In this document: piece after piece, positions 8,316 through 64,000 of the stretch | Numbering within the stretch: position 1 is the stretch's first letter | Layout: the number at the start of each line of letters is the position of its first letter | Source of the DNA: an uncultured Clostridia bacterium | GTDB taxonomy: Bacteria; Bacillota; Clostridia; Lachnospirales; CAG-274 | Assembly (NCBI GenBank): GCA_947628755.1 | Contig: CANRBC010000001.1 | Location: 124,001 to 188,000, forward strand | Direction of reading: 5' to 3' | DNA length: 64,000 nucleotides | Position numbers and translations under genes: made by a program | The notes under the pieces: model-generated | Told to the model about the DNA's origin: nothing | Database searches by the model: none | What the model saw: the letters and a program-made list of their open reading frames with translations, nothing else

Positions 8316-8656
8316 GATATATCAATATTGGCGACTTGGCTATAAAAATAGACCTTCAAGAAGTGAATTACGAAGTCATAGCTATGGCTAAATGGGACAA
8401 GGACATAAGAAAGTATATTGCAGCGCTATACATAAAACGTTATGACATAGAGCAGTTTGACTTAATGCAAGCATATGCAATCTTAACGTTTCATGCCAGC
8501 AGGCACAACATAAAACCTACTATTACTCATTTTGTAGAAAATGAATACCGCAAAGGCAAATTGCAATATTACATAGACAGATATGAATATTATCTTAAAT
8601 GCTTTGACAAGGGAAATGATTATTTTGAAAATAATGGATTTCAGCATAGGGGTTGA
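8312..8656 (+). CDS. Hypothetical protein, 114 aa
   Basis: Starts with GTG overlapping the upstream stop, with GAGGAGTG nearby. The protein is mixed alpha/beta (YINIGDLAIKIDLQEVNYEV at the start) with a basic C-terminal half. Its TGA overlaps the TTG proposed for the polymerase-like gene. Conserved position directly before the large protein suggests an accessory role, but no family is recognised. Confidence 0.6.
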   Translation: MRYINIGDLAIKIDLQEVNYEVIAMAKWDKDIRKYIAALYIKRYDIEQFDLMQAYAILTFHASRHNIKPTITHFVENEYRKGKLQYYIDRYEYYLKCFDKGNDYFENNGFQHRG

Positions 8657-11454
8657 GGCGTATAGCACTTGACACTCAAATTAATTTATATTCCGTAGAT
8701 ACAGGCTTCTTCTATTCCCATAGAGAAGCCTATCTGCACAATATGAATTGTAAATATAGGCAGGAAAGAAATTATATATGCAATAAGCTTCCTGAATATG
8801 AGGAATTGCTTTGCGAATATGGATATACCAAGAGAGACTTATCTAATCTCAAAAACGGTCACATAGAAGATATGAATATCATATATGGGACTAATGACCT
8901 GCTCTATGAGTATATGCACTGGCAACACCTTATAAAACATAAAAGAGAAAAAGCAAAGCGGTCAAAAGCGAAGTTATTGCAATTATTACAAAACAAGGCA
9001 GATATAAATACGGCAATCAAAGAAATGTCTGACAAACAGCCCTTGAACAGACGTGGTTCACAGCGAAAATTACATCACAACAGGTATCTGGCAAGCGATA
9101 TGCTCGGCGATAACTGTGTAATATCGCTATTTGAGTCAGCCCTTACACGTCTTATAGGAATAGAACGGGACGAACTGACCGATGCCCTTGTGGTCGTTCA
9201 GATATTCTATTTGGATATGTTCAGAGATTTGTTGTATAACGGATTTTATTACAACGGTGAAAAGTATATTTACTATACTTCCTCTGCCGGACAGATACGA
9301 AAGAAGAAAGCCGTATTTATAAAAGAGACTATATGGCAGCAACACGAAAAAACTATTATGTGCGGTCTGACTATAGACTCTATAAATGCAAGCGGAGGCA
9401 ACAATGTAAACAAACACCTTGCTTACCTAGCCCTTACAAACTCCGCGACTGATGAATGGGTTAATTTCGATATAGATAAATGTATCGTTATTGACGACTT
9501 TGAAACGGACGTACAGGGAACTTATGACTTTATAGATGAAACCGACTACTCTATTACAAGAGAAACGGGAGTTATTCCCATACCTCATACGGACGGCGCA
9601 GGAATGATATTACCTTATGCTTTTGGCGAAAGTCAAAAGAACACTATGGTAAGACTAAGTTGGATAAAAGGTCTTTTAGGTGTATTTGATTACAGAAAGT
9701 TTATAGAGGAACATCACTGTCCTACCGTTATAAAAGATATATACGGCTGTGAACACGATATTGTGAAAGAGGACATACAAGTCATATTCACAAAGTCACA
9801 ATTCAAGATGCACTCTCATTATGCAAGTTGGCAGGAATATAAGGATAACTATAAAAAATATCATTGTACCGCAGGGCGATGTAACATCGAAGAGGACAGA
9901 ATAAAGTCCTCTAAAATAAATTATCAAATGCTGCAATCCTTAACGGATATAAACGATGATGAGATACATCAACTGGCTCAAAGGTCGATTGACAAAATCA
10001 ATAATCTATGCGGCTCTCAAAAATCTATGATGGAGGCTCTGGGCATTACGCCATACAATACAAATATGACGTACTTCCAACAAGCGGTCAAAATATACCC
10101 TGCCCTTCTCAACGACACATTTGCCAAAGATACTTTACGAGACATTAAAAACAGCCTTGTAAAAAAATACAGAAGCGGAAAGCTTGAAATCAACGGTAAA
10201 TTTACATTTGTACTTCCCGACTTCTATGCTGCCTGCGAGTATTGGTTTATGCACACGGAACAGCCCAAAGGATTATTGGCAGACAGGGAGGTATTCTGCG
10301 AACTGTTTAATCTGTATGACAAATTAGACTGCCTGCGTTCTCCCCACTTATACAAGGAACACGCAGTTAGATATAATACAGCTCATCAAAGTTATGACGA
10401 CAGGGCGGAAAATATTCGTAAATGGTTTCAGACCAATGCAATATATACAAGCTGTCACGACCTTATAAGCAAAATATTACAGTTGGACGTAGACGGCGAT
10501 AAACTATTGGTAGTCGCCGACCCTCTGTTTATAAGCATAGCGGAACGCAATATGAACAATATTGTACCCTTGTACTACAATATGAAAAAAGCAGAGTCCG
10601 TAGAACTGAACAGCGAAAATATGTATAACGGGCTTCACGCTGCCTTTGTTGGCGGAAACATAGGTCTATACAGTAACAACATAACTAAGATATGGAATGA
10701 CGAAGTATTTATAAACGGCACAGACGCCGATAAACAGATAGCGACTGACTGTGTAAAGAGATTATGCTGTCAGGGCAACTTTGTAATAGACTATGCCAAG
10801 TCGCTGTATAAACCTGAGTTTCCCGACGAGATAAAGAAGCAGGTGTCTGTATTTACGAACAAAAAACTGCCTGCCTTCTTTGAGTTTGCCAAGGATAAAA
10901 AGAAATCACAGGTGGCGAAGAGAAACAAAAGCTTTGTCAATAAACTATATAAGCTTATTCCCAACAGAGGAATAAATACCCGTCTGTTAAAACTTGACGA
11001 GTTGGACTATCATAAACTGATGAACGATGTCAATACGGTATGCTTGCCCGAGGTTTCTGACTTGTATAATGAACTGAATAAACAGTACAGATATAAGTTT
11101 AATTTGCAGAACGACTACTTAATGCACGCAAGATATTTGTCCTGCAAGATAAGAGACCAGTTCGCAAAATTAGGCTATACGGGAAGCCATATCACAGATA
11201 TGCTTGTTAAATATGCTTACGGGAACAATATAAGATATAAAGAACTATTATGGTTCTGTTTTGGCTCTTATATCGTGGATAATCTGCGCCGTAATGTAAT
11301 AATAAAGCAAACTAAGTACATACAATGTCTCGACTGCGGAGAGTGGATAGAGGTTGATATAGACAACAGAAGAACATACAGATGCCCTTCCTGTCAGGAT
11401 AAATTTACACGCACGACCAAGACCAGAAGGCAGAGAAAATACCGTCAGAAATAG
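8653..11454 (+). CDS. YonO-like single-chain RNA polymerase (putative)
   Basis: A 933-residue protein close to the roughly 900-residue length of phage SPbeta YonO. The decisive motif is LDVDGDKLLVVAD near residue 615, the DxDGD metal-binding signature of two-barrel RNA polymerases (beta-prime subunit, QDE-1-type RdRPs, YonO). Upstream, PIPHTDGAGMILP, then RLSWIKGLLGVF and FTKSQFKMHSHYASW resemble the DG.G, R..KG and SQ.K motifs that precede it in the RdRP/YonO superfamily. The C-terminus is a zinc ribbon (CLDCG, CPSCQ) with a basic tail. YonO transcribes SPbeta late genes, so a late-transcription role is plausible. The TTG at 8653 touches the AGGGG site; an ATA at 8662 has better spacing. Family assignment rests on motifs only. 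Confidence 0.6.
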   Translation: MRRIALDTQINLYSVDTGFFYSHREAYLHNMNCKYRQERNYICNKLPEYEELLCEYGYTKRDLSNLKNGHIEDMNIIYGTNDLLYEYMHWQHLIKHKREKAKRSKAKLLQLLQNKADINTAIKEMSDKQPLNRRGSQRKLHHNRYLASDMLGDNCVISLFESALTRLIGIERDELTDALVVVQIFYLDMFRDLLYNGFYYNGEKYIYYTSSAGQIRKKKAVFIKETIWQQHEKTIMCGLTIDSINASGGNNVNKHLAYLALTNSATDEWVNFDIDKCIVIDDFETDVQGTYDFIDETDYSITRETGVIPIPHTDGAGMILPYAFGESQKNTMVRLSWIKGLLGVFDYRKFIEEHHCPTVIKDIYGCEHDIVKEDIQVIFTKSQFKMHSHYASWQEYKDNYKKYHCTAGRCNIEEDRIKSSKINYQMLQSLTDINDDEIHQLAQRSIDKINNLCGSQKSMMEALGITPYNTNMTYFQQAVKIYPALLNDTFAKDTLRDIKNSLVKKYRSGKLEINGKFTFVLPDFYAACEYWFMHTEQPKGLLADREVFCELFNLYDKLDCLRSPHLYKEHAVRYNTAHQSYDDRAENIRKWFQTNAIYTSCHDLISKILQLDVDGDKLLVVADPLFISIAERNMNNIVPLYYNMKKAESVELNSENMYNGLHAAFVGGNIGLYSNNITKIWNDEVFINGTDADKQIATDCVKRLCCQGNFVIDYAKSLYKPEFPDEIKKQVSVFTNKKLPAFFEFAKDKKKSQVAKRNKSFVNKLYKLIPNRGINTRLLKLDELDYHKLMNDVNTVCLPEVSDLYNELNKQYRYKFNLQNDYLMHARYLSCKIRDQFAKLGYTGSHITDMLVKYAYGNNIRYKELLWFCFGSYIVDNLRRNVIIKQTKYIQCLDCGEWIEVDIDNRRTYRCPSCQDKFTRTTKTRRQRKYRQK

Positions 11455-57346: not shown

Positions 57347-60040
57347 ATGAAATTTTTAGACTTAAACGGTCTTAAAGTTGTCCTTCAAAAGCTGTTGTCC
57401 AAAGTGGCAACAGCCTTTGACAGCTTAGACTATAGGGTTGAAAACCTTGAGGGCAATTACCTCTCCAAGAAGGACAGCGCCGCAAGTGCCAAAAAGCTTG
57501 ACACAGACGCAGGCACAGAAAGTCAGCCCGTCTACTTTGAAAACGGAATACCCGTTGCCATAGGTCATACAATAGACTCCGATGTACCCAAAGACGCTAA
57601 GTTTACCGATACCACATATACAGACGCTACTACCACACAGCACGGTCTTATGTCCGTAGACGACAAAAAGAAACTTAACGGCATAGCAGAAAACGCCAAT
57701 AACTACGCTCACCCTACGTCAAGCGGTTATAAGCATATACCAAGCGGCGGAAGCGCAGGTCAGTTCTTAAAATGGAGCGCTGACGGTACGGCTGAATGGG
57801 CTAACGACAACAATACTACTTATGTTCCCGCGACTACTTCACAAGACGGTCTTATGAGTGCTAATGATAAAAAGCAGTTAGACAATATGCCTACAGAGCT
57901 TAACAAAAAGCTTAACACAAGTCAAAAGGGTGTGGCAGGAGGTTTGGCAGAGCTTGACCAAACAGGCAGAGTACCCGCTAATCAGCTTCCTTCCTTCGTT
58001 GACGATGTAGTTGAAGGTTATTACTACGACAGCAAGTTTTATAAGGAAAGCACTCACGGAACAGTCATAGACGGCGAAGCGGGAAAGATATATGTTGACC
58101 TTTCAAGCAATAAGACTTATCGTTGGGGCGGTACAGCCTTTACTGTAATATCCGAAACACTTGCTATAGGCAATACGGCTACTACGGCAGGACGCGGCGA
58201 CTGGACAAAAACGGCTTACGAACACTCACAGAAAGCTCACGCTCCTTCCAACGCACAGGCAAATCAGAACGCCTTCAGCAAGGTAGCTGTAGGCGACACA
58301 ACTATAAATTCGGGAAATGCCACAGATACATTGACGCTTACGGCAGGAAAGAATGTTACCTTAACTCCCGATGCAAGCGGAAAGAAGATAACTATTGCTT
58401 CCGATGATACGACTTATGGCATAGTATCATCTACAGCTAACGGTTTAGCTCCTAAGTCTGACGGAAGTACAAACAAGTACCTCAGAGCAGACGGAAGCTG
58501 GCAAATACCTCCTAACACAGATACGAAGTACAATAACTTTGTGGGAGCTTCTGCCAATGCAAACGGTAACGCAGGCTTAGTTCCTGCGCCTAATATGGGC
58601 GACCAGAATAAGTTTCTGAAGGCTGACGGAAGTTGGTCTACGCCGACCGATACCAATACCGATACTAAGGTATCACAGACTGTTACTACAACTACGGGCA
58701 ATTACCCGATACTTTTAGGCAGTGCAGGTCAGACAGGTAATGCAACTCAAGGCGCATATTTCGGTAAGGGCATTACGGCAAATCCTAATACAAGCACGAT
58801 TACGGCTACAACATTCAGCGGAAAGGCGACGTCGGCGGGAACGGCTGATAGTGCTAATAAGGTAAACAATAAACTGAGCATATCCCTTAACGGCGGTACG
58901 GCTACGACTTATGACGGAAGCTCTGCTCAGACGATAAATATAAATCCTTCCACTGTTGGTGCGGCAACAAGCGGACATAACCATGACAACAAGTATCTGA
59001 AATTGGCTGGCGGTACTGTAACGGGAGATGTTACTTTTAATAAGTATGTTAAAATTAACGCATGGACTAATTATGGCGAGGGAGCCGCTGAATTATGGTT
59101 TGATGGAAATAAAAAGGCTATATGTGCAGACCATGGTAGTGCCACTGATATTGAATTAAACGCTTCCAGTGCTACAAAAGTGAAGAATGCGCTTACATTC
59201 ACGGGAGCGGTTTCAACTAGCTATGACGGTTCTGAGACTAGGAGTATAGCGATCCCCACAGTATCTGACAAAAAGATAACCATTACACAGGGCAGTTCTA
59301 CAAAAGGTTCATTCACCCTTAACCAAAACAGTGATTTAACAATAAACCTGACAGACACAAACACTTGGACGCCATTTAAAGGTGCGACTTCTACCGCCGC
59401 AGGAACGGCAGGCTATATAAGCACTGTACCAAAAATGGGAGAAACGGGACTGTATTTCAAGTCTGACGGTACTTGGGGTACGCCTACAAATACCACTTAT
59501 AATGACGTTACCACAACTAACCACGGTCTTATGACAGCGACAGATAAGGTCAAGCTGAACGGTATACAAGCCAATGCTACGGCTGTATCATTCAGCAGCA
59601 GTTTATCATCAGGCACTAAAATAGGTGCTATCACAATAAACGGCACAAGCACAAATATATACTGTCAGACAAATATGGACACACATCACGCTGCTTATCT
59701 GTATACAGGAGCAAGCAGTACAGCTACGGCAAACGCACAGGCATCTAACGGCAGCCTTTACCTTAATCTTGTTGAAAACGGTACTGTAAGAAACAGCCAC
59801 AAGATAACGGGAAGTGGGGCTACATCAGTTACAAGTGATACAAGCGGCAACATTACTATAAGCAGCACAAATACAGTTTATACTCACCCGACTACGGCAG
59901 GAAACAAGCACATACCTACAGGCGGTTCATCAGGACAGTTGCTCGGCTATTCTGCAAGCGGAACGGCACAATGGGTAGAAGGCTTTACGGCTATAACCGA
60001 TACGGAAATAGACGATATGATAACAGAAGTTTTCGGGTAA
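57347..60040 (+). CDS. Long tail fibre protein 3
   Basis: 897 residues. Head motif FLDLNGLKVVLQKLLSKVA, then repeated fibre elements: GLMSVDDKKKLNGIAENANN, GLMSANDKKQLDNM and GLMTATDKVKLNGI, and two copies of YKHIPSGGSAGQFLKW-like HIPTGGSSGQLLGY. Residues about 215-300 duplicate the VDDVV...GRGDWTK block of the preceding gene. The centre is Thr/Gly-rich beta structure. Likely the main side fibre. Internal repeats make it recombination-prone. Confidence 0.65.
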   Translation: MKFLDLNGLKVVLQKLLSKVATAFDSLDYRVENLEGNYLSKKDSAASAKKLDTDAGTESQPVYFENGIPVAIGHTIDSDVPKDAKFTDTTYTDATTTQHGLMSVDDKKKLNGIAENANNYAHPTSSGYKHIPSGGSAGQFLKWSADGTAEWANDNNTTYVPATTSQDGLMSANDKKQLDNMPTELNKKLNTSQKGVAGGLAELDQTGRVPANQLPSFVDDVVEGYYYDSKFYKESTHGTVIDGEAGKIYVDLSSNKTYRWGGTAFTVISETLAIGNTATTAGRGDWTKTAYEHSQKAHAPSNAQANQNAFSKVAVGDTTINSGNATDTLTLTAGKNVTLTPDASGKKITIASDDTTYGIVSSTANGLAPKSDGSTNKYLRADGSWQIPPNTDTKYNNFVGASANANGNAGLVPAPNMGDQNKFLKADGSWSTPTDTNTDTKVSQTVTTTTGNYPILLGSAGQTGNATQGAYFGKGITANPNTSTITATTFSGKATSAGTADSANKVNNKLSISLNGGTATTYDGSSAQTININPSTVGAATSGHNHDNKYLKLAGGTVTGDVTFNKYVKINAWTNYGEGAAELWFDGNKKAICADHGSATDIELNASSATKVKNALTFTGAVSTSYDGSETRSIAIPTVSDKKITITQGSSTKGSFTLNQNSDLTINLTDTNTWTPFKGATSTAAGTAGYISTVPKMGETGLYFKSDGTWGTPTNTTYNDVTTTNHGLMTATDKVKLNGIQANATAVSFSSSLSSGTKIGAITINGTSTNIYCQTNMDTHHAAYLYTGASSTATANAQASNGSLYLNLVENGTVRNSHKITGSGATSVTSDTSGNITISSTNTVYTHPTTAGNKHIPTGGSSGQLLGYSASGTAQWVEGFTAITDTEIDDMITEVFG

Positions 60041-60064: not shown

Positions 60065-61456
60065 ATGAAAGTTTTAAAGGATACCGAGTTAAAAGCTTTG
60101 CTGACCAAGTTAAAGAGTAAGTTTGCTCTTGCTAATCACACCCACACAGGCTATGCGAACAGTACGCATAGCCATAGTGTGGCTTCCACTACTGCGGCAG
60201 GCTTTGCTCCTCAGAGGACGGGTACCACTACTAAATTTTTGAGAGATGATGGTACTTGGGCTGTGCCGCCTGATACAAAAGTGACCATAGACACATATCT
60301 GAACGCTTCAAGTACAAATCCTGTAAGAAACAGCGTGGTTACAAATGCTCTTAACGGAAAGGCGGGTACTTCCGTTGCTACTACATCGGCAAACGGTCTT
60401 ATGAGCGCTGCGGACAAGACGTGGATTGATAAAGTAAAGGGAGAAGATTGCTCGCAAACGGGAGATTATTCTCATGCAGAAGGAAGTTGTACTACAGCTA
60501 GTGGCGCATATTCTCACGCAGAAGGACTGAACGCTCGCACAATAGGAGAGTATTCTCATGCTGAGGGCGAGGAAACTGAGACACAAGGAGATTATTCTCA
60601 TGCCGAGGGTGCTTATACTATAACACAAGGAGAGTATGCGCATGCAGAAGGCGAGAATACTACAGCGAATGGACTCTATTCTCACGCAGAAGGAAATGGT
60701 ACTAATGCAAAAGGCAATTATTCTCATGCTGAGGGCATAAGCACCATAGCAAGTGCTTATCAGCACGCCGAAGGTTGCTTTAATGTAGAAAAAGCAACTG
60801 CGGGTGTAATGTATTCTAATACCTCTAACAGCTTATTGATAGTAGGTAATGGAACAAGTTCAACCCGTTCCAATGCATTTAGAGTGACCATGGAGGGTAA
60901 ATGTTATGGCAAGAGTGCCTTTGTATCAAGCGGGGCAGATTATGCAGAATACTTCGAGTGGATCGACCGAAATATTGAAAATGAGGACAGGAGAGGGTTA
61001 TTTGTAGCCCTTGAAGGCGAAAAGATAAGAATAGCAAAGCCAACAGATGATTATGTGTTGGGAGTTATCTCCGCTACCCCTCTTATTGTAGGTGATACGC
61101 AATCTGAGACTTGGAAAAATATGTATAAGACTGACATATACGGGTCGCCCATAATCGAAACAAAAGAAGTGGAGGAAACAACAGATAAACGGGGTCATGT
61201 TATACCAGCTCACACTTCTACTCAGTTTGTGGTCAATCCAGACTACAACCCTAATCAGGAATACAAGTCAAGAGAAGAGAGACCCGAATGGGGCGCTGTG
61301 GGTATGTTTGGCAAGCTCATTGTGAGAGATGACGGTAGCTGCCAGGTAAACGGTTACTGCAAGCCTGCCGAGGGCGGTATCGCTACAAAGGCAGATACCG
61401 GTTATAGGGTACTTGCAAGGCTTGACGATACCCATATAAAGATACTTATCAAATAA
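60065..61456 (+). CDS. Tail fibre with YadA-like repeats and G2 peptidase domain
   Basis: 463 residues. Head motif VLKDTELKALLTKLKSKF, fibre motif NGLMSAADKTWIDKVKG, eight 14-residue SHAEG repeats (about residues 135-237) forming a YadA-head-like left-handed beta roll, then a Peptidase_G2-type domain starting at SGADYAEYFEWIDRN and running to the end (PEWGAVGMFGKLIVRDDGSC). In phage GA-1 this domain is an intramolecular chaperone that folds the trimer and then cleaves itself off. So the mature fibre is probably shorter than the gene product. Confidence 0.75.
   Translation: MKVLKDTELKALLTKLKSKFALANHTHTGYANSTHSHSVASTTAAGFAPQRTGTTTKFLRDDGTWAVPPDTKVTIDTYLNASSTNPVRNSVVTNALNGKAGTSVATTSANGLMSAADKTWIDKVKGEDCSQTGDYSHAEGSCTTASGAYSHAEGLNARTIGEYSHAEGEETETQGDYSHAEGAYTITQGEYAHAEGENTTANGLYSHAEGNGTNAKGNYSHAEGISTIASAYQHAEGCFNVEKATAGVMYSNTSNSLLIVGNGTSSTRSNAFRVTMEGKCYGKSAFVSSGADYAEYFEWIDRNIENEDRRGLFVALEGEKIRIAKPTDDYVLGVISATPLIVGDTQSETWKNMYKTDIYGSPIIETKEVEETTDKRGHVIPAHTSTQFVVNPDYNPNQEYKSREERPEWGAVGMFGKLIVRDDGSCQVNGYCKPAEGGIATKADTGYRVLARLDDTHIKILIK
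60467..60775 (+). repeat. Eight tandem 42-bp SHAEG-coding repeats
   Basis: Each unit encodes Y-S-H-A-E-G plus eight variable residues. The DNA words for SHAEG are reused with few changes, so unit number can change by recombination. Confidence 0.75.
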
Positions 61457-61478: not shown

Positions 61479-61940
61479 ATGGATTACATAAATATTTTGC
61501 TCAACACAGGACTATCTCAGGTAGTTCTTATTTTATTTGCGGCAATTTTTGTACTTCGTTCTTGTGTTGAGGTTATTGACTGGCTCTTGTGTCGATTTGG
61601 AATAAAAACCAAGTCGGCACTTGCCAAAGAGGGTATATACAAGGATATGGAACAGCTTAAAAAGGCAGACATAGAAGCCGATAAGAAATTTGCGGCTATA
61701 GAGTCTACCCTTGACAAGCTGATGATAGCAAGCAGAGAAAGTCTTGCTTATAAAATAAACGAAAAGTATAGAAAATATCTACATCTTGGCTATATACCCT
61801 CTGATGAACTGGGCGAATTTATGAATTTACACGACGCATATCAGGGCGTAGGCGGTAATCATAGCGGAGATGCGAAGTTTGATTATTGCGTTAATAACCT
61901 AGAAGTAAAAGACGAATTTGAAAGGGAGTCTGAAACGTGA
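61479..61940 (+). CDS. Membrane protein before the holin
   Basis: A 153-residue protein with one N-terminal hydrophobic segment (GLSQVVLILFAAIFVLRSCV) and a helical soluble part ending DEFERESET. Phages of Firmicutes often have such a protein in front of the holin, possibly a second holin or pinholin regulator. Its TGA overlaps the holin start (GTGAAAA). Confidence 0.6.
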   Translation: MDYINILLNTGLSQVVLILFAAIFVLRSCVEVIDWLLCRFGIKTKSALAKEGIYKDMEQLKKADIEADKKFAAIESTLDKLMIASRESLAYKINEKYRKYLHLGYIPSDELGEFMNLHDAYQGVGGNHSGDAKFDYCVNNLEVKDEFERESET

Positions 61941-62200
61941 AAACAGAATACAAAGTTGAAACAGGCACTATCATAAGACTTATTGTGTTGGCTATAGCCT
62001 TTGCCAATCAGATATTGACAATGACGGGACACCCCGTATTGCCTATTGACAGTGACGAGTTTGCCAATGCGGTTGCTACTATTATAACCGCAATAGCCGC
62101 TCTTTGGGGCTACTGGAAAAACAATTCCTTTACAAAGAACGCAATTAAGGCAGACGAGGTATTAAAGGAATTAAGAGAGTCTGACAAAATCGGGGAGTGA
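61937..62200 (+). CDS. SPP1/Dp-1-type phage holin
   Basis: 87 residues with two hydrophobic segments (GTIIRLIVLAIAFANQILTM and FANAVATIITAIAALWGYW), the linker motif PVLPIDSDE, and a charged tail KADEVLKELRESDKIGE. This is the standard small holin that opens the membrane for the endolysin. Coupled upstream; the endolysin ATG is five bases after its stop. Confidence 0.8.
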   Translation: MKTEYKVETGTIIRLIVLAIAFANQILTMTGHPVLPIDSDEFANAVATIITAIAALWGYWKNNSFTKNAIKADEVLKELRESDKIGE

Positions 62201-62205
62201 TAAGT

Positions 62206-63084
62206 ATGGGATATACGAACAGCCCTTTAGTTGACTATACAAGGATTTCTCCTAACAGATATGTAAACAGAAAACACACCATTGACAGGATAACGCCCCA
62301 TTGTATTGTGGGACAATGGACGGTCGAACAAATAGGGAACTGTTTTGCGCCTACTAGCAAAGGGGCAAGCTGTAACTACGGCATAGCGAAGGACGGAAAG
62401 GTCGCTCTGATAGTTGAGGAAAAAGACGGCTCTTGGTGTTCTTCAAGTGAGAGTAACGACCGTCGTGCCGTTACTATCGAATGTGCAAGCGACACGACAC
62501 ATCCTTATGCTTTCAGAACCGAAGTATATGAAAAATTAATCAAGCTGTGTGCGGATATATGCAAGCGTAACGGCAAAACAAAGTTATTGTGGCTTGGCGA
62601 CAAGACGCAGACTTTAAACTATGCACCCAAGTCAAATGAAATGGTATTGACGGTTCATAGGTGGTTCAAGACCAAGGCTTGTCCGGGCGACTGGCTTATG
62701 GCGCGAATGGGCGACCTAGCTTCAAAGGTCAACGCACTGCTGAATACAGACGAGGCAAAAAAGGAGGACGATGAAGTGGTCAGCGAAGGTAAGATAATTA
62801 CTAATGGCAAGGAATACAAGTGCGACAGAATACTGAAAAATGATGAGAATTTTGTCAAGATAGGTAATTTTAGAAATATGGGCTTTAATGTAGGCTATAA
62901 TGCAAACACTAAGGCTTTTACCCTTGACAACAAGGTAAATGACATAACCGTCAATTTTGACGGTCAGGATAAGCCTGTGAGAGCCGTTAATATCGGAGGG
63001 TATAATTATATCTCTGCTAGGGATTTGGCGGCTGTGATAGGCAAAACAATAGATTTTAAAGACGGTAAAATCGTAATTGAATAA
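62206..63084 (+). CDS. Endolysin, N-acetylmuramoyl-L-alanine amidase
   Basis: 292 residues. ATG at 62206 is preferred because GGGGAGTG lies upstream. The amidase_2 domain spans residues about 20-180: first zinc ligand in DRITPHCIVGQW, second His and the Cys in LTVHRWFKTKACPGDW. It cuts the bond between muramic acid and peptide. The C-terminal 85 residues (KEYKCDRILKNDENFVKIGN, YNYISARDLAAVIGKTIDFK) form a copper-amine-oxidase-N-like wall-associated domain. Works with the holin just upstream. Confidence 0.85.
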   Translation: MGYTNSPLVDYTRISPNRYVNRKHTIDRITPHCIVGQWTVEQIGNCFAPTSKGASCNYGIAKDGKVALIVEEKDGSWCSSSESNDRRAVTIECASDTTHPYAFRTEVYEKLIKLCADICKRNGKTKLLWLGDKTQTLNYAPKSNEMVLTVHRWFKTKACPGDWLMARMGDLASKVNALLNTDEAKKEDDEVVSEGKIITNGKEYKCDRILKNDENFVKIGNFRNMGFNVGYNANTKAFTLDNKVNDITVNFDGQDKPVRAVNIGGYNYISARDLAAVIGKTIDFKDGKIVIE

Positions 63085-63096
63085 AGGACTGATTGA

Positions 63097-64000
63097 ATGG
63101 AATTTTTAAGTAAAGATGGGCTAAAACATCTACTTACGAAAATGAAGCCTGCGATTGAGGAAACTTCTCGCGGGGGGGGTGTAGCGGGTACTACAAGGGA
63201 GTAGACCTTACTGTACGCCATAAGAACGAAATACAGACCTCTTATAATGGCAACGCTTGGGCTTGGATAAACGACAGAGTACAAAAACAGAACTATGAGG
63301 GTATATTTGTAGGGGATTATATTCCCGTTACGCTGACGGAAACACAGGACGGCTGTGGTACTAACGTACATCATATGCAGGTAATGGGGATAAATACTCA
63401 TACGGGAAGTTTAACACATCAAAGCGGAGGCGGATATTTAAAGGGACATATTGATTTTTGTGCTTTGGAATGTTATGGCGCAGAATATCATATGTGGAAT
63501 CAAAATGGTACGAACAACGGCACAAAAGCAGAAATCTGCCCGTATATGGCGTCCGATTTAAGGACATATCTGACGACTACGGTTTATAATGCCCTGCCAT
63601 CAGAGCTTAAAGCTGTCATAGTAGATAAATACGCATACATAGAGGGTAGATATTCCGCTTCAGGACAACTGAAGGACAGTGGTAACTACTTCAATAAAAG
63701 AAATTTAGGTAAGGTATGGGCGCCTACCGAGTATGAAGTATTTGGCTCTACTATATATGGAACTGAATCAAGATCGGAAGGACAGGCTGTACAGTACCCA
63801 TTATTCAGAAGTCAAGGCGGAAGAAATCTGCTCGGTTGCTCAGATGATGGAAGCGGTATATGCGGTTCTATATCTTGGTGGACGGCTTCTGTTGCTTACA
63901 ATTCGTCTGAGAATTGTATTTATGTACACGACTGGGGCTATGCTTGTATCGATTGCGCTGACTGTGAATTTTATGTTCCTCTCTGCTTCCGAATCGCACA
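63097..64000 (+). pseudogene. Tail fibre/adhesin, out of frame at an 8-G tract, cut by window end
   Basis: ATG at 63097 gives MEFLSKDGLKHLLTKMKPAI, the same head motif as the fibre genes at 56473-60065. At the G8 tract (63172-63179) the frame fails and stops at a TAG after nine more codons. Adding one G continues open to the window end: CSGYYKGVDLTVRHKNEIQT, many Gly/Asn-rich strands, and a last domain (SWWTASVAYNSSENCIYVHD, YVPLCFRI) like DUF6273/C-lectin-type variable adhesins. So the gene is OFF in this copy but looks intact otherwise, suggesting phase variation. The 3' end is outside the window. Confidence 0.7.
63172..63179 (+). repeat. Poly-G tract (G8), candidate phase-variation switch
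   Basis: Eight G in a gene that otherwise uses AT-rich codons. Nine (or six) G restore the reading frame; eight stop it. Confidence 0.7.

What the first reader, a model, noticed from the sequence alone, without database searches (positions are those of the whole stretch)
63097..64000. Phase-variable tail adhesin behind a G8 tract
Seen: eight G put the gene out of frame; nine restore a long, coherent adhesin frame with the same head as the fibre genes. The C-terminal WWTASVAYNSSENCIYVHDW region is of the DUF6273/C-lectin type. Known: poly-G slippage switches surface proteins; such C-terminal domains are targets of diversity-generating retroelements. Both mechanisms could act on one protein. 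The end of the gene and any template repeat or reverse transcriptase lie beyond the window.
Basis: partly seen in the sequence, partly recalled or inferred. Interest (0 to 1): 0.78.

Follow-up and report, generated by a model that had tools for sequence, protein, structure and literature searches.

The report
Phage tail adhesin with poly-G switch
A prophage in a gut bacterium carries a tail adhesin gene that a run of eight G's puts out of frame, most likely as a reversible on/off switch, and this adhesin belongs to a family normally diversified by a retroelement that this phage has lost.

Summary
G8 at 63172-63179 breaks a gene (63097-64007) that G6 or G9 would keep open. The head matches the phage's fibre heads; the C-terminal part is DUF6273. 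The same gene in another species of the genus carries G9 and is also out of frame. Both sides of the break are under purifying selection in the predicted frames. Across five species of the genus, exact G7 runs number 3 and exact G9 runs 25, so these runs are not the tail of a random distribution. Slipped-strand ON/OFF switching is the best reading (0.72). Programmed -1 frameshifting or transcriptional slippage is not excluded, because both genes sit in the same register.

The gene stops 7 bases after the window, followed by a 69-aa ORF and a host gene. No template repeat was found; the genome's only reverse transcriptase is a type II-A retron. Seven relatives (Roseburia phage Shimadzu among them) do have Avd, an A-biased template repeat and RT right after the same gene. 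This looks like a DGR target that lost its DGR and sits behind a poly-G switch. Tract-length variation within one population was not tested.

The parts
63083..63088 (+). AAAGGA, likely ribosome-binding site 8 nt before the ATG
   Evidence: read from the sequence
63097..63171 (+). fibre-type head, MEFLSKDGLKHLLTKMKPAIEETSR (25 codons)
   Evidence: score 37 and 35 against the heads of the fibre ORFs at 57347 and 60065; shuffles mean 10, max 34; dN/dS 0.08 against G004
63172..63179 (+). G8 tract; G6, G9 or G12 would join head and body; OFF as assembled
   Evidence: homologue in G004 (L022:5970-5978) has G9, OFF, ON = G7 or G10
63180..64000 (+). adhesin body, DUF6273 domain; gene stop lies at 64005-64007 (L002:1005-1007)
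   Evidence: Pfam DUF6273 E 3.1e-9; end read; first 65 codons: 11 of 13 differences to G004 at codon position 3, p 2e-4
63864..63983 (+). segment that aligns with the variable repeat of the DGR-bearing relatives (fossil variable region, no template repeat here)
   Evidence: aligned with the Shimadzu TR/VR; 10 of 12 template-Asn positions are NNY codons; no second copy in G000 or G004
62197..63084 (+). endolysin (Amidase_2), directly upstream
   Evidence: Pfam 1.5e-13 and PHROG endolysin; dN/dS 0.03 against G004
61937..62200 (+). holin
   Evidence: phrog_263 holin E 3e-27
60065..61456 (+). tail fibre/appendage protein with the same kind of head; Peptidase_G2 autoproteolytic C-terminus
57347..60040 (+). 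tail fibre-like protein with the same kind of head

Best explanation
The gene encodes a tail adhesin: a short fibre-type head for attachment to the virion and a DUF6273 receptor-binding body. The G8 tract between them is a contingency switch. Slipped-strand mispairing at replication adds or removes a G, so that some prophage or phage copies make the full adhesin (G9 or G6) and others only a 35-residue stub (G8, the assembled state). The body descends from proteins that in related phages are rewritten by a diversity-generating retroelement (DGR); in this lineage Avd, template repeat and reverse transcriptase are gone, so it varies by ON/OFF switching and by allelic exchange of its C-terminal part. 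Shown here: tract, frame break, second out-of-frame homologue, selection on both frames, DGR in seven relatives and its absence here. Inferred: that the tract length actually switches, that the protein is on the virion, that it binds a receptor, and that the DGR was lost rather than never present.
For: Tract and frames. In G004 the homologue (68% identical body) has G9, also out of frame. Differences fall on codon position 3 in both frames: head 5 of 7, first 65 codons after the tract 11 of 13, pooled p 2.5e-5; dN/dS 0.08 and 0.10. So the out-of-frame part is not decaying, and selection acts upstream of the first internal ATG (63375). Genus-wide excess of G9 over G7 (25 vs 3 in five species). 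Other coding tracts in these genomes lie out of frame in the other direction (acyltransferase, G004 G9, ON 8 or 11; helicase, G000 G8, ON 7 or 10) or in frame (DUF11 protein G9, methyltransferase-like G9). DGR relatives: Avd, RT and TR/VR with nearly all mismatches at template A (8 of 9 up to 15 of 15; 9 of 12 in L018), VR at the C-terminus. DGR-less group on one branch, 97/94. Precedents: poly-G tracts in Campylobacter phages (Sorensen 2021, known here only by title, from the reference list of PMC10877375) and a Bifidobacterium poly-G slippage switch (PMC9187656).
Against: No length variation within one population was seen, as no reads or further strains were available. The two homologues sit in the same register (83 nt from ATG to the first downstream codon), which a constitutive -1 recoding event would also predict. 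The run itself could have been kept by shared descent. No G-tract version of the gene was found in 2.9 million viral contigs.
Confidence: 0.72

Rival explanations
1. Programmed -1 ribosomal frameshifting, or transcriptional slippage, on the G run. The gene is always out of frame in DNA and a fixed fraction of product is full length.
For: Both homologues need the same -1 shift. Slippery strings read in frame: G GGG GGT in the window, G GGG GGG in G004. A conserved GAGGA lies about 10 nt upstream, at a distance at which an internal Shine-Dalgarno can stimulate shifting (sequence).
Against: No downstream stimulatory structure: folding z -0.79 and -0.68. The alternative product is only a 35-aa stub. 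Other out-of-frame tracts in these genomes need the opposite shift. Same register has a one-in-two chance if both are OFF.
Confidence: 0.15
2. Assembly or sequencing error in the homopolymer: the true sequence is G9 and the gene is simply ON.
For: G runs are error-prone; both homologues are one G short of an open frame.
Against: Two separately assembled genomes would need the same error. Other G9 tracts in G000 are called in frame (L063, L067), and the acyltransferase and helicase tracts would need a different error, so there is no uniform under-calling.
Confidence: 0.08
3. A fixed frameshift: the adhesin is a pseudogene in a decaying prophage.
For: Out of frame in both assemblies; no DGR left.
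Against: No other stop in 275 codons in either species and strong purifying selection in the disconnected frame; neighbouring lysis genes intact.
Confidence: 0.05

Closest known systems
Campylobacter phages with hypermutable poly-G tracts (Sorensen et al. 2021, Cell Rep 35:109214; full text not held, known from its title as cited in PMC10877375 and PMC11868660)
   Same: phage genes carrying poly-G tracts proposed to generate variants by slippage; host genus also rich in poly-G contingency loci
   Different: here a temperate phage of gut Clostridia, and the switched protein belongs to a family that is normally a DGR target
DUF6273 DGR target proteins of Faecalibacterium prophages Roos, Pioen, Lelie and CP11 (PMC11792537) and Roseburia phage Shimadzu orf22 (LR596903.1)
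   Same: same domain, variable region at its extreme C-terminus; Shimadzu orf25 homologue follows here too
   Different: here no Avd, template repeat or RT; fibre-type head of 25 residues instead of the tail-collar N-terminus; poly-G tract at the joint
Bifidobacterium breve sortase-dependent pili switched by a G-tract (PMC9187656)
   Same: gut Gram-positive; G tract splits one coding sequence into two frames; replication slippage joins them
   Different: chromosomal pilin, not a phage protein
Major tropism determinant of Bordetella phage BPP-1
   Same: phage receptor-binding protein with a C-terminal variable repeat (from PMC11792537 and general knowledge)
   Different: active DGR there; no DGR and no shown C-lectin fold here

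Membership tests
Simple-sequence-repeat (poly-G) phase-variable gene | homopolymer longer than the genome's background allows | tested here: met
   exact G7 1, G8 5, G9 8 in G000; five species of the genus G7 3, G9 25; window run lengths
Simple-sequence-repeat (poly-G) phase-variable gene | repeat in the 5' coding part, so that a one-base change switches the frame | tested here: met
   tract at codons 26-28; ON lengths 6, 9, 12
Simple-sequence-repeat (poly-G) phase-variable gene | the out-of-frame part is maintained by selection | tested here: met
   11 of 13 differences at codon position 3 before the first internal ATG, p 2e-4
Simple-sequence-repeat (poly-G) phase-variable gene | tract length varies between cells or strains | not testable with these tools
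   no reads or second strain; G8 against G9 between species, but in the same overall register
DGR (diversity-generating retroelement) target | target domain with variable region at its C-terminus | tested here: met
   DUF6273; aligned with VRs of seven DGR loci
DGR (diversity-generating retroelement) target | A-biased template repeat | tested here: not met
   no second copy of the VR segment in G000 or G004, none by the TR/VR scan of L002, L022, L076
DGR (diversity-generating retroelement) target | DGR reverse transcriptase (and Avd) nearby or in the genome | tested here: not met
   nothing but a 69-aa ORF and a host gene follows; only RVT_1 in G000 is a type II-A retron; Shimadzu RT finds no match in G000-G004. 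The PF05635 search for Avd is uninformative, as Shimadzu Avd does not match that family
C-type-lectin fold receptor-binding domain | C-lectin fold | tested here: inconclusive
   model pLDDT 65, pTM 0.72; no Foldseek match at E 0.001; one VIA match, Thomasclavelia ramosa IgA peptidase, Z 8.4, rmsd 4.0, 180 residues
Phage tail fibre/adhesin | head shared with other fibre proteins of the phage | tested here: met
Programmed -1 frameshift gene | slippery heptamer plus stimulator | tested here: inconclusive
   slippery string and GAGGA present; no stable downstream structure

The most novel reading that the evidence does not exclude
A phage lineage of gut Clostridia has exchanged one diversity generator for another on the same receptor-binding protein: retroelement hypermutation was lost and poly-G slippage took its place, within a bacterial lineage that itself uses poly-G switches in coding sequences and, between -35 and -10 boxes, in promoters of secreted carbohydrate-active enzymes.
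Probability: 0.35. Interest if true: 0.75.

Novelty: new variant of a known kind. Interest (0 to 1): 0.6.

Why it matters
Phages diversify receptor-binding proteins by retroelements, inversions or slippage, and it is not known how a lineage moves from one to another. Here the same protein family is found with an active DGR in relatives and with a poly-G switch and no DGR in a gut prophage, which makes that question testable by comparison. If the host-wide excess of G8-G9 tracts is functional, phase variation is also an overlooked trait of these gut Clostridia.

Tried and rejected
Active DGR in this prophage: rejected. Internal translation start at 63375 as the real gene: rejected, because the 65 codons before it are conserved as protein and it has no ribosome-binding site. 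Searches of IMG/VR with the body, the head, the first body stretch and a G7-plus-YxGxDLT pattern (seven chance hits) found no second G-tract version. PHROGs and NCBIfam have no family for the body. PDB by sequence: one weak match (E 0.17), not meaningful. Foldseek gave no significant match. att repeat: only a 16-base AT-rich match, not relied on. Preservation of the G run by selection between G000 and G004 is not claimed: at dS about 0.3-0.4 three GGG codons could survive by chance.

Full report
What is there. The window is positions 124001-188000 of a 189,875-base contig of a 2.5-Mb bacterial genome, G000. Its last gene starts at 63097 after an AAAGGA site, directly behind a holin and an Amidase_2 endolysin of a prophage. 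After 75 nt comes G8 (63172-63179). The starting frame then ends after 35 residues. The other frame, from 63180, runs 275 codons to a stop at 64005-64007, seven bases outside the window. G6 or G9 would join the two.

Is it more than chance? By dinucleotide shuffling a G8 somewhere in the window is not rare (22% of shuffles). Real runs thin out faster: lengths 3, 4, 5, 6, 7 occur 559, 76, 6, 0 and 0 times, which extrapolates to about 0.02 runs of eight or more. In the whole genome exact G7 occurs once, G8 five times and G9 eight times. Over the five species of the genus G7 totals 3 and G9 25. Other genera of the family show the usual decline (for example G022, G019, G028) or the same excess (G006, G008, G067). 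G8-G9 runs are thus a separate class in this genus.

The homologue. Among 392 genomes of the order, one same-genus genome (G004; the same locus is L022, a metagenome assembly titled 'Lapin-004') has the same gene after the same endolysin, with a body 68% identical. Its tract is G9 and it is also out of frame: two bases are missing before the tract and one T is added after it, so G7 or G10 would be ON. Head and first 65 body codons differ almost only at third codon positions (5 of 7 and 11 of 13, pooled p 2.5e-5; dN/dS 0.08 and 0.10). The rest of the body is far more diverged (dS above 1), as if its receptor-binding end had been exchanged. The disconnected frame has therefore been translated, joined to its head, over evolutionary time.

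The DGR question. The nearest phage relative, orf22 of Roseburia phage Shimadzu (42%), is annotated with Avd and reverse transcriptase behind it, and its template and variable repeats differ at 17 places, 16 of them A in the template. Six further relatives (L016, L017, L018, L020, L023, L024) show the same order and A-biased repeats, the variable repeat always at the C-terminus. This agrees with the report that variable regions of Faecalibacterium phage DGR targets map to the C-terminus of DUF6273 (PMC11792537). In G000 and G004 the gene is followed directly by a 69-aa ORF whose homologue in Shimadzu lies after the RT, then a terminator and host genes. No template repeat and no DGR-type RT was found; the only RT in G000 is a type II-A retron. 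The window's codons at the 12 template-asparagine positions are NNY in 10 cases (gene background 150 of 275, p 0.04; in G004 9 of 12, p 0.13), a weak trace of past mutagenesis. The DGR-less bodies lie on one branch (97/94). G067, in a neighbouring genus, also lacks an adjacent DGR and has no G tract, although its genome has a DGR elsewhere. Loss of the DGR is the simplest reading, but the tree is unrooted.

How it works. The best explanation is slipped-strand switching of a tail adhesin. The strongest rival is -1 recoding on the G run: both homologues need the same shift, and a slippery string and an upstream GAGGA are present. Against it, there is no downstream structure, the stub has no evident use, and other out-of-frame tracts in these genomes (acyltransferase in G004, helicase in G000) need a different change. 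Systematic under-calling by the assembler is unlikely for the same reason and because other G9 genes are in frame. Actual switching was not observed and needs reads.

Novelty. Poly-G tracts in phages are known from Campylobacter phages, and DUF6273 as a DGR target is known. Their meeting on one protein family, with the DGR gone, was not found in the papers searched, which are a limited library. I rate it a new variant of a known kind.

Noticed in passing
G000:C19:19446 (L056), G004:C39:16696 (L060), G000:C11:31186 (L066), G004:C4:109511 (L072), also G000:C44:8357, G000:C5:57754: G9-G11 runs abut a -10-like box (ATTTA-G9-TATAAT in the orthologous pair L056/L060, with TTGACA upstream). Downstream genes include secreted proteins, a pectate lyase with CBM77 (L066) and a GDSL esterase (L072): candidate phase-variable promoters.
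   Followed up: partly
five species of the genus (G000-G004): Run-length inversion: exact G7 3, exact G9 25; most G9 runs are flanked A...T. Several other genera of the family show the same excess, others do not.
   Followed up: partly
G004:C14:19952 (L074) and G000:C17:48733 (L068): Acyltransferase (Acyl_transf_3) and a helicase split into two frames at G9 and G8; a DUF11 secreted protein (L063) and a methyltransferase-like gene (L067) have G9 in frame.
   Followed up: partly
G004:C29:27313 and 28207 (L075): Two adjacent related ORFs on the opposite strand each have a poly-C run near their start.
   Followed up: no
window 8653-11454: 933-aa protein matching the eukaryotic-type RdRP family (PF05183, E 4e-13), probably a phage single-subunit RNA polymerase.
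   Followed up: no
window 60065-61456: Fibre with a series of SHAEG repeats and a Peptidase_G2 autoproteolytic C-terminus.
   Followed up: no
G000:C41 (L004): Type II-A retron: RT and NDT effector (PADLOC).
   Followed up: yes
window 63375 onward against L022: Sharp rise in synonymous divergence after body codon 65 (dS 0.27 to above 1.5), suggesting allelic exchange of the receptor-binding part.
   Followed up: partly
adhesin body model: Only structural match is the N-terminal part of the Thomasclavelia ramosa IgA peptidase (9qa6), Z 8.4 over 180 residues, 14% identity; the model is of modest confidence.
   Followed up: no
G000:C1:112341 and C1:188362: 16-base direct repeat TTTATGTATATTATAC on both sides of the prophage, a possible but weak att candidate; an integrase lies at C1:122695-123591.
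   Followed up: no
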